A DNA stretch of 38,602 nt, taken from a bacterium (GTDB lineage: Bacteria > Fidelibacterota > UBA2242). Shown here piece after piece: positions 36,368-37,001 of the stretch. The position numbers and the translations under genes are program-made. Numbering within the stretch: the first letter of the stretch is position 1; each line of letters opens with the position of its first letter. The notes below the pieces were generated by a model. The model worked only from the letters and a program-made list of their open reading frames with translations. It searched no databases and had not been told where the DNA came from. Location: the NCBI GenBank assembly GCA_018824205.1, contig JAHJGX010000249.1, positions 1 through 38,602 of the forward strand, given 5' to 3'.

Positions 36368-36479
36368 GGGCGATTAGCTCAGGTGGTTAGAGTACTTGTC
36401 CCGACAAGTCGGGAGGGTCACTGGCCATAATCGATAATGGTTTTATTTAGAATGTCGTTTTTTTGATATTGATATTTTC
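36368..36479 (+). repeat. tRNA-Val-derived repeat unit 1 (112 bp, type A 3' half)
   Basis: GGGCGATTAGCTCAGGTGGTTAGAGTACTTG + TCCCGACAAGTCGGGA + GGGTCACTGGCCATAATCGATAATGG... Confidence 0.95.
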
Positions 36480-36591
36480 GGGTGATTAGTTCAGGTGGTT
36501 AGAGTACTTGTCCCGACAAGTCGGGAGGGTCACTGGCCATAATCGATAATGGTTTAATTTAGAATGTCGTTTTTTTGATATTGATATTTTC
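36480..36591 (+). repeat. tRNA-Val-derived repeat unit 2 (112 bp, type A)
   Basis: GGGTGATTAGTTCAGGTGG... with TCCCGACAAGTCGGGA; same 3' half as unit 1. Confidence 0.95.
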
Positions 36592-36703
36592 GGGCGATTA
36601 GCTCAGGTGGTTAGAGTACTTGTCCCGACAGATCGGGAGGGTCACTAACCATTATCAGTGCTGTACAGATTTTGAATGAAGATTTTTAAATTTTGATATT
36701 TTC
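36592..36703 (+). repeat. tRNA-Val-derived repeat unit 3 (112 bp, type B)
   Basis: TCCCGACAGATCGGGA; 3' half GGGTCACTAACCATTATCAGTGCTGTACAG... Confidence 0.95.
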
Positions 36704-36815
36704 GGGCGATTAGCTCAGGTGGTTAGAGTACTTGTCCCGACAAGTCGGGAGGGTCACTAACCATTATCAGTGCTGTACAGATTTTGAATGAAGATTTTTA
36801 AATTTTGATGTTTTC
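36704..36815 (+). repeat. tRNA-Val-derived repeat unit 4 (112 bp, type B)
   Basis: TCCCGACAAGTCGGGA; same 3' half as unit 3. Confidence 0.95.
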
Positions 36816-36927
36816 GGGCGATTAGCTCAGGTGGTTAGAGTACTTGTCCCGACAGGTCGGGAGGGTCACTGGCCATAATCGATAATGTTTTAATTTAGAA
36901 TGTCGTTTTTTTGATATTGATATTTTC
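36816..36927 (+). repeat. tRNA-Val-derived repeat unit 5 (112 bp, type A)
   Basis: TCCCGACAGGTCGGGA; 3' half as units 1 and 2. Confidence 0.95.
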
Positions 36928-37001
36928 GGGCGATTAGCTCAGGTGGTTAGAGTACTTGCTTGACATGCAAGGGGTCACTGGTTCAAGTCCAGTATCGCCC
37001 A
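36928..37001 (+). tRNA. tRNA-Val (anticodon GAC), intact
   Basis: Acceptor GGGCGAT/ATCGCCC; anticodon arm CTTGC-TTGACAT-GCAAG; T arm ACTGG-TTCAAGT-CCAGT. Confidence 0.96.

What the first reader, a model, noticed from the sequence alone, without database searches (positions are those of the whole stretch)
36368..37001. Exact 112-bp tandem array of chimeric tRNA-Val 5' halves ending in one intact tRNA-Val(GAC)
Six successive GGGCGATTAGCTC starts lie at 36368, 36480, 36592, 36704, 36816 and 36928, exactly 112 bp apart. The first five keep the acceptor 5' strand, D arm and ACTTG, but lack a normal anticodon loop, T arm and acceptor 3' strand. Only the last is a complete tRNA. Zero length drift despite sequence drift suggests recent amplification, concerted evolution or selection on unit length. 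This is neither a CRISPR array nor a normal tRNA cluster.
Basis: seen in the sequence. Interest (0 to 1): 0.85.

Follow-up and report, generated by a model that had tools for sequence, protein, structure and literature searches.

The report
Hairpin-armed pseudo-tRNA array beside tRNA-Val
A marine bacterium carries, just upstream of a working valine-tRNA gene, five tandem broken copies of that gene whose anticodon arm has been swapped for a GC-rich hairpin; the same odd signature recurs at other tRNA genes in its relatives, usually beside a tiny GIY-YIG nuclease gene, which points to an undescribed kind of selfish element that lives on tRNA genes.

Summary
The array is real: five 112-bp units (36368-36927) precede one intact tRNA-Val(GAC) (36928-37002) and thrS, in a Ca. 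Neomarinimicrobiota genome. The units are not simple 5' halves. Each is a tRNA-Val copy whose anticodon arm is replaced by the hairpin TCCCGAC-NN-GTCGGGA; the variable region then resumes before an AT-rich spacer.

The 112-bp length is not conserved in relatives (96 to 163 bp), so selection on length is not supported. The hairpin is conserved, and the unit tracks each genome's own tRNA (12/12 genomes).

The same signature occurs at other tRNA genes (Pro, Asp, Gly, Ala, Asn, Met, Val-CAC) in this genome and phylum. Hairpins sit at structurally equivalent places: anticodon arm replaced exactly, D-loop at 12|19, T-arm at about 50|59. Many of these loci carry a ~80-aa GIY-YIG nuclease ORF directly after the intact tRNA (22 of 34 within 40 nt).

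Best explanation: an ORF-less derivative of a tRNA-associated GIY-YIG, homing-like element family, amplified and homogenised by recombination. Shown: the anatomy and the associations. Inferred: nuclease cutting, mobility and hairpin function. No description was found in the papers searched. The nearest known case is phage SegB, a GIY-YIG nuclease that amplifies tRNA genes.

The parts
36251..36282 (+). Probable promoter of the leader/tRNA-Val precursor: TTG (36251-36253), 20 nt, TAAATTAAG (36274-36282)
   Evidence: Read from the sequence; conserved TTAAATTAAGTCTCG block upstream of tRNA-Val in relatives with and without the array. Assignment as an FCB-type -33/-7 promoter rests on my own knowledge.
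36368..36479 (+). Pseudo-tRNA-Val unit 1 (spacer type A)
36480..36591 (+). Pseudo-tRNA-Val unit 2 (type A; two substitutions in the acceptor/D part)
36592..36703 (+). Pseudo-tRNA-Val unit 3 (spacer type B)
36704..36815 (+). Pseudo-tRNA-Val unit 4 (type B)
36816..36927 (+). Pseudo-tRNA-Val unit 5 (type A)
36399..36414 (+). Hairpin TCCCGACAAGTCGGGA replacing the anticodon arm, unit 1
36511..36526 (+). Hairpin replacing the anticodon arm, unit 2
36623..36638 (+). Hairpin TCCCGACAGATCGGGA replacing the anticodon arm, unit 3
36735..36750 (+). Hairpin replacing the anticodon arm, unit 4
36847..36862 (+). Hairpin TCCCGACAGGTCGGGA replacing the anticodon arm, unit 5
36928..37002 (+). Intact tRNA-Val(GAC)
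   Evidence: ARAGORN; Rfam RF00005 66.7 bits
37071..38600 (+). thrS (threonyl-tRNA synthetase), 5' part, the gene downstream of tRNA-Val
   Evidence: Pfam TGS, tRNA_SAD, tRNA-synt_2b; Neomarinimicrobiota relatives

Best explanation
The array is an ORF-less (non-autonomous or relict) form of a family of tRNA-gene-associated elements widespread in Neomarinimicrobiota. In its full form such an element consists of an intact host tRNA gene, a ~80-aa single-domain GIY-YIG nuclease ORF starting a few nt to a few tens of nt after the tRNA, and flanking partial tRNA copies in which the D-loop, anticodon arm or T-arm has been replaced by a (T)CCCGA...TCGGG(A) hairpin. Most likely mechanism (inferred): the nuclease breaks tRNA genes. 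Repair from, and unequal recombination between, the flanking tRNA copies inserts, multiplies and homogenises units, while one intact tRNA is always kept. The hairpin-armed copies are dead as tRNAs and probably resistant to the nuclease, so they serve as stable homology arms. In the window, five 5'-type units were amplified by unequal exchange upstream of tRNA-Val(GAC) and are transcribed, if at all, as part of the leader of the tRNA-Val-thrS transcript. Shown: the anatomy, the recurrence, the structure-registered hairpin boundaries, the association of tRNA, ORF and hairpin, and the tracking of the local tRNA. Inferred: cleavage, mobility, resistance, and that a nuclease acting in trans made this particular array.
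For: 1. Same anatomy at other tRNA genes of the same genome. tRNA-Pro(CGG) has an upstream 5' unit with hairpin TCCCGATCTGTCGGGA and an AT-rich spacer, then the intact tRNA, then the ORF 6 nt later, then a hairpin-armed 3' copy. tRNA-Ser(TGA) has the same layout with a different hairpin. Further hairpin-armed copies belong to tRNA-Gly, -Asp, -Ala and -Met. 2. Phylum-wide: 80 of 150 genomes carry the ORF family. Of 34 ORF loci examined, 28 have a same-strand tRNA immediately 5', 22 of them within 40 nt. A rough density model gives p ~5e-4 per ORF. 3. Of 78 hairpins within 1.3 kb of a tRNA, 66 have at least one flank and 38 both flanks matching that tRNA; the reversed-flank control gives 1 of 156. 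Boundaries recur across tRNA species: anticodon arm exactly replaced (Pro, Ala, Val-CAC), T-arm 50|59 in Asp and 49|58 in Gly, D-loop 12|19. 4. A single-contig genome (G036) has such arrays at tRNA-Val(CAC), Pro, Asn and Asp; GIY-YIG ORFs lie within the Val and Asp arrays and beside the Pro array. 5. Hairpin number correlates with GIY-YIG number across 49 genomes (Spearman 0.63, p=1e-6; control pattern 0.10). 6. Unit bases at tRNA positions 44-45 equal the genome's own tRNA in 12/12 genomes with four different types. tRNA-derived parts are near-identical while spacers differ by a third. 7. About 35 of 126 homologous ORFs end in tails such as HAGGRPD, which read as translation of a tRNA anticodon stem running into TCCCGAC; two of these carry Bacteroidota source names. 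8. Precedent: SegB, a GIY-YIG homing endonuclease, cuts within tRNA genes and drives tandem amplification of tRNA genes (PMC13096335).
Against: No GIY-YIG ORF was found at the tRNA-Val(GAC)/thrS locus in any genome examined, nor anywhere in the window, so the link for this array is by shared anatomy only. No cleavage, homing or transcription data exist. Most of the 52 TCCCGA...TCGGGA hairpins in this genome (about 37) are not in tRNA copies, so the hairpin is not specific to these elements. The 34 ORF loci and 78 hairpins come from loci fetched because they held the ORF, the hairpin or tRNA-Val, so the percentages are not genome-wide rates.
Confidence: 0.58

Rival explanations
1. A dispersed REP-like palindrome replaced part of a duplicated tRNA-Val gene, and ordinary replication slippage or unequal crossing-over made and homogenised the tandem copies. 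No nuclease is involved and the array is neutral debris.
For: TCCCGA...TCGGGA hairpins are scattered through the genome, 52 against 2 for the control pattern, many outside tRNA copies. Tandem duplication alone can give period 112 and concerted evolution. The array is ORF-less and patchy between close relatives.
Against: Hairpins stand at the same structural positions in many different tRNA species, and a GIY-YIG ORF is attached to tRNA genes far above chance. REP transposase (Y1_Tnp) genes are present, but none of the six checked is flanked by the TCCCGA...TCGGGA hairpin.
Confidence: 0.27
2. A functional leader RNA: the pseudo-tRNA units form structured domains in the tRNA-Val-thrS transcript and regulate it by attenuation, decoy binding or processing.
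For: The array lies between the probable promoter and the tRNA. Units fold better than shuffles (z about -1.6 to -3.3). An extended hairpin from D-loop to T-stem keeps 87% of cells paired across 13 distinct units.
Against: There are no two-sided compensatory changes and covariation does not exceed shuffles. No terminator-like site. No T-box or other Rfam family. Presence is patchy among close relatives with the same operon. The same arrays sit beside unrelated tRNA genes.
Confidence: 0.07
3. Remnants of integrative elements using the tRNA gene as attachment site (tyrosine integrase).
For: A defence island (type I RM, SIR2, Dsr1-like) lies directly upstream, and tRNA genes are common integration sites.
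Against: No integrase among the neighbouring proteins examined. The repeated piece is the tRNA 5' part with an internal hairpin, not a 3' att core. The same structure occurs at tRNA genes without islands and in related genomes with other upstream genes.
Confidence: 0.03
4. Assembly artefact of a metagenome bin.
For: The genome is a 275-contig assembly, and short reads can mis-assemble repeats.
Against: Units differ from each other. Comparable arrays occur in independent assemblies, including a one-contig genome.
Confidence: 0.03

Closest known systems
SegB, free-standing GIY-YIG homing endonuclease of T-even phages (PMC13096335)
   Same: GIY-YIG nuclease gene next to tRNA genes; cuts within tRNA genes; needed for tandem segmental amplification of tRNA genes by homologous recombination.
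   Different: Phage-borne. Amplified tRNAs are intact and functional; no hairpin-armed tRNA copies are described. Here the ORF is a minimal ~80-aa domain nearest in sequence to UPF0213 structures 1zg2/1ywl, copies are inactivated, and this particular array has no ORF. Cleavage is untested.
REP elements (repetitive extragenic palindromes; PMC3733652 listed)
   Same: Short GC-rich palindromes dispersed in the genome.
   Different: Here hairpins replace defined tRNA arms in tandem tRNA copies; the REP transposase genes of this genome carry other palindromes.
Mitochondrial palindromic elements with intronic/free-standing GIY-YIG ORFs (for example Fusarium palindromic repeats, PMC7218506, listed)
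   Same: Small hairpins and GIY-YIG ORFs mobile in the same genome.
   Different: Organellar, not registered to tRNA arms, not tandem tRNA copies. Only the listed abstract start was read.
Bacterial/phage tRNA arrays (for example Mycobacterium tRNA array units, PMC12803027, listed)
   Same: Several tRNA-derived units in a row.
   Different: Those hold intact tRNAs of many isotypes; here one isotype, one intact copy and five inactivated copies.

Membership tests
Free-standing GIY-YIG homing element at a tRNA gene (SegB-like) | GIY-YIG nuclease ORF at the locus | tested here: not met
   None at tRNA-Val(GAC)/thrS or in the window; present at other tRNA genes of the same genome
Free-standing GIY-YIG homing element at a tRNA gene (SegB-like) | ORF lies next to tRNA genes (other loci of the family) | tested here: met
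   28 of 34 ORF loci, 22 within 40 nt
Free-standing GIY-YIG homing element at a tRNA gene (SegB-like) | Conserved GIY-YIG motif residues | tested here: met
   Y, Y.G, R, HN and E columns at least 90% conserved over 19 ORFs; Pfam PF01541
Free-standing GIY-YIG homing element at a tRNA gene (SegB-like) | Cuts the tRNA gene and spreads to empty alleles | not testable with these tools
   Needs biochemistry or population genetics
REP/RAYT system | Dispersed palindrome in excess of chance | tested here: met
   52 against 2 control matches
REP/RAYT system | Palindrome flanks the cognate Y1 transposase gene | tested here: not met
   None of six PF01797 loci has the TCCCGA...TCGGGA hairpin
CRISPR array | Short identical repeats with unrelated spacers | tested here: not met
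   The 112-bp unit repeats along its whole length, with two related spacer types; no cas model among the best matches of the neighbouring proteins
Functional tRNA gene cluster | Several complete tRNA genes | tested here: not met
   Only one tRNA found by ARAGORN and Rfam
tRNA-located group I intron with homing ORF | Group I intron RNA in the tRNA gene | tested here: not met
   No Rfam intron match in 15 loci; the replaced segment is only 16-24 nt
T-box or other known leader of an aminoacyl-tRNA synthetase gene | Rfam family match in the leader | tested here: not met
   Only tRNA matched at E up to 1

The most novel reading that the evidence does not exclude
A previously undescribed class of bacterial selfish element that parasitises tRNA genes: a minimal GIY-YIG nuclease plus tandem tRNA copies whose arms are actively replaced, at structure-defined positions, by palindromes, perhaps because the nuclease (UPF0213-like) recognises hairpins or cruciforms formed by tRNA-gene DNA. 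Spread across the FCB superphylum, with ORF-less derivatives such as the window's array mobilised in trans.
Probability: 0.35. Interest if true: 0.9.

Novelty: new variant of a known kind. Interest (0 to 1): 0.72.

Why it matters
It turns an isolated oddity into a recurrent, testable system: a nuclease gene fused to tRNA neighbourhoods and tRNA copies disarmed by hairpins at fixed structural positions, in bacteria where nothing of the kind was found described. It offers a cellular counterpart to phage SegB tRNA amplification, a source of tRNA pseudogenes, and an explanation for the odd tRNA-derived tails on many annotated GIY-YIG nuclease family proteins. The exact arm replacement also asks how a palindrome is swapped in so precisely.

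Tried and rejected
- Hairpin as an ordinary REP mobilised by RAYT: transposases exist but carry other palindromes. The OrfB search was a misdirected test of the same idea.
- Selection for unit length: rejected, since lengths vary between genomes.
- Conserved RNA structure of the unit: hairpin kept but no two-sided covariation; left inconclusive.
- Terminator in each unit: none found in the window. In one distant family (f7) the spacer looks terminator-like by eye; not followed.
- Group I intron, T-box: no Rfam match.
- Phage origin of the ORF: only two weak Listeria phage hits, none in viral contigs.
- Literature: searches on tRNA pseudogene arrays, GIY-YIG with tRNA, and Marinimicrobia repeats found no description. 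Subscription journals and preprints are largely not covered.

Full report
WHAT IS THERE. The window belongs to a Ca. Neomarinimicrobiota metagenome-assembled genome (G000, contig C20). Upstream of thrS lies an intact tRNA-Val(GAC) at 36928-37002. Before it stand five units of exactly 112 bp. Each unit is a tRNA-Val copy in which the anticodon arm CTTG-CTTGACATG-CAAG is replaced by CTTG-TCCCGAC-NN-GTCGGGA. The variable region and the 5' strand of the T-stem then resume (GGGTCACTGG in units 1, 2 and 5; GGGTCACT in units 3 and 4), and a 57-nt AT-rich spacer follows. The T-arm 3' strand and acceptor 3' strand are missing. Spacers come in two types (units 1, 2, 5 and units 3, 4) that differ at 18-20 of 57 positions without an indel (38/57 identical against a shuffled mean of 33%), while the first 31 nt differ by 0-2. 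So the tRNA-derived part is homogenised and the spacer is not.

RELATIVES. The same hairpin in the same place occurs upstream of tRNA-Val(GAC) in the same genus and family (G001; G004 with 96-bp units; G005 with a 111-bp unit) and in distant families (f7: G046 with 163-bp spacing, G094, G052, G067; f25: G218; degenerate or different forms in f11, f24, f27). It is absent in close relatives such as G013, G006, G012, G055 and G048. In G013 the tRNA follows the conserved promoter block directly. Period is therefore not conserved, but the hairpin and position are. At tRNA positions 44-45 the unit equals the local tRNA in 12 of 12 genomes, with four different dinucleotides. This is concerted evolution, or repeated derivation from the local tRNA.

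THE SIGNATURE IS NOT RESTRICTED TO tRNA-Val. TCCCGA(N)TCGGGA hairpins are in excess in most of these genomes (G000: 52 against 2 for the reversed control pattern). In the single-contig genome G036 they form tandem arrays beside tRNA-Val(CAC) (85 bp), tRNA-Pro(CGG) (112 bp, six copies), tRNA-Asn (109 bp) and tRNA-Asp (104 bp, nested in larger repeats). GIY-YIG ORFs lie within the Val and Asp arrays and beside the Pro array. In G000 about 15 of the 52 hairpins lie in or beside tRNA-derived sequence, including copies of tRNA-Pro, -Gly, -Asp, -Ala and -Met; the functional tRNA-Ser(CGA) carries the hairpin as its variable arm. The other ~37 hairpins are in unrelated places.

STRUCTURE-REGISTERED BOUNDARIES. 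For 78 distinct hairpins within 1.3 kb of a tRNA in the fetched loci, 66 have at least one flank matching that tRNA (11 nt, at most 1 mismatch) and 38 have both. The same test with reversed flanks gives 1 of 156. Pro, Ala and Val(CAC) copies lose exactly the 17-nt anticodon arm. Val(GAC) copies keep CTTG, except in family f24. Asp copies are interrupted at 50|59 and Gly copies at 49|58 (T-arm). Gly, Met and Val copies are also interrupted at 12|19-20 (D-loop). Some Gly and Asp copies carry all three replacements. These loci were fetched through the ORF, the hairpin or tRNA-Val, so the fractions are not genome-wide rates.

THE NUCLEASE ORF. G000 has 12 PF01541 matches, about ten of them short. 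Five start a few nt after tRNA genes: Ser-TGA, Ser-CGA, Pro-CGG, Gly-GCC and a decayed one at Ser-GGA. At tRNA-Pro the order is: 5' unit with hairpin and AT-rich spacer (same plan as the window's units), intact tRNA, ORF, hairpin-armed 3' copy. The ORF family is in 80 of 150 phylum genomes. Of 34 loci, 28 have a same-strand tRNA just upstream, 22 within 40 nt; a rough density model gives p about 5e-4 per locus. Hairpin number and ORF number correlate over 49 genomes (Spearman 0.63, p=1.4e-6; control pattern 0.10), although relatedness of the genomes was not corrected for. Catalytic-type residues are conserved; the nearest solved structures are UPF0213 proteins 1zg2 and 1ywl. Homologues carry Cloacimonetes and Bacteroidota names. 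About 35 of 126 end in tails like HAGGRPD, which read as a tRNA anticodon stem running into TCCCGAC, and a few begin with tRNA-3'-half translations such as TVTPEVAGSSPVGPA. The tRNA-ORF-hairpin layout therefore probably extends beyond this phylum; no DNA from those phyla was examined.

HOW IT MOST LIKELY WORKS. The best reading is a homing-like element family living at tRNA genes. A GIY-YIG nuclease breaks tRNA genes, and recombination between tRNA copies inserts, amplifies and homogenises units. Copies disarmed by hairpins are probably resistant. One intact tRNA remains because the tRNA is essential. SegB gives the precedent: a GIY-YIG endonuclease cutting within tRNA genes and required for tandem amplification (PMC13096335). 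The motif reported there, RAWTSGAAC, is the reverse complement of the T-loop consensus GTTCSAWTY (my own reading), the very segment replaced in Asp and Gly copies here. In the window the locus has no ORF, so the array would be a relict or mobilised in trans; this step is inference.

RIVALS. Neutral duplication of a tRNA copy disrupted by a dispersed palindrome is the main rival. It does not explain the registration to tRNA arms in many isotypes or the ORF association, and the REP transposases of this genome carry other palindromes. A leader-RNA function is weakly supported: units fold better than shuffles, but a proposed extended hairpin shows no two-sided compensation, there is no terminator and no Rfam family. 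Integrase att sites, group I introns, CRISPR and assembly error are disfavoured.

NOVELTY. No paper describing this arrangement was found, with the limits of an open-access library. I file it as a new variant of a known kind (GIY-YIG nuclease-associated tRNA amplification). The stronger claim of a new class of tRNA-parasitic element is kept as the novel case.

Noticed in passing
window 26060-36036: Defence island directly upstream of the array: type I restriction-modification genes (HsdR, HsdM, HsdS), a DUF559 protein, a SIR2-domain protein and a 932-aa protein matching the C-terminal part of Dsr1, so a possibly split Dsr1-like sirtuin defence pair.
   Followed up: partly
L241 (G000 C233), tRNA-Ser(CGA): The only intact-looking tRNA-Ser(CGA) at this locus carries the TCCCGACGTGTCGGGA hairpin as its variable arm and is still called a tRNA by ARAGORN and Rfam.
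   Followed up: no
L232 (G036:C1:2678900-2683200): Large higher-order array at tRNA-Asp: ~690-bp repeats, each with several 104-bp hairpin-armed tRNA-Asp pieces and an identical GIY-YIG ORF, in a single-contig genome.
   Followed up: partly
L019, L008, L031 (family f7): Pseudo-tRNA-Val units are followed by a T-run and then GGGCGATACTG, the reverse complement of the tRNA 3' end, seemingly a fused acceptor/T-stem minihelix.
   Followed up: no
homologues P0032, P0076, P0085, P0116 and about 30 others: GIY-YIG proteins in public databases carry N- or C-terminal tails that are read-through translations of neighbouring tRNA pieces and hairpins; possible annotation artefacts.
   Followed up: partly
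L239 (G000 C100): Another GIY-YIG ORF lies within a different family of interspersed repeats (CTCGAGGAACTCGCTCCTCAGGATGACA), not next to a tRNA.
   Followed up: no
L331, L332 (G000 C166, C93): Y1 transposase genes flanked on both sides by near-identical palindromes (CCACCCAATAAATTGGGTGG; CCTCCCGGAGG...CCTCCGGGAGG), probably genuine RAYT/REP pairs.
   Followed up: no
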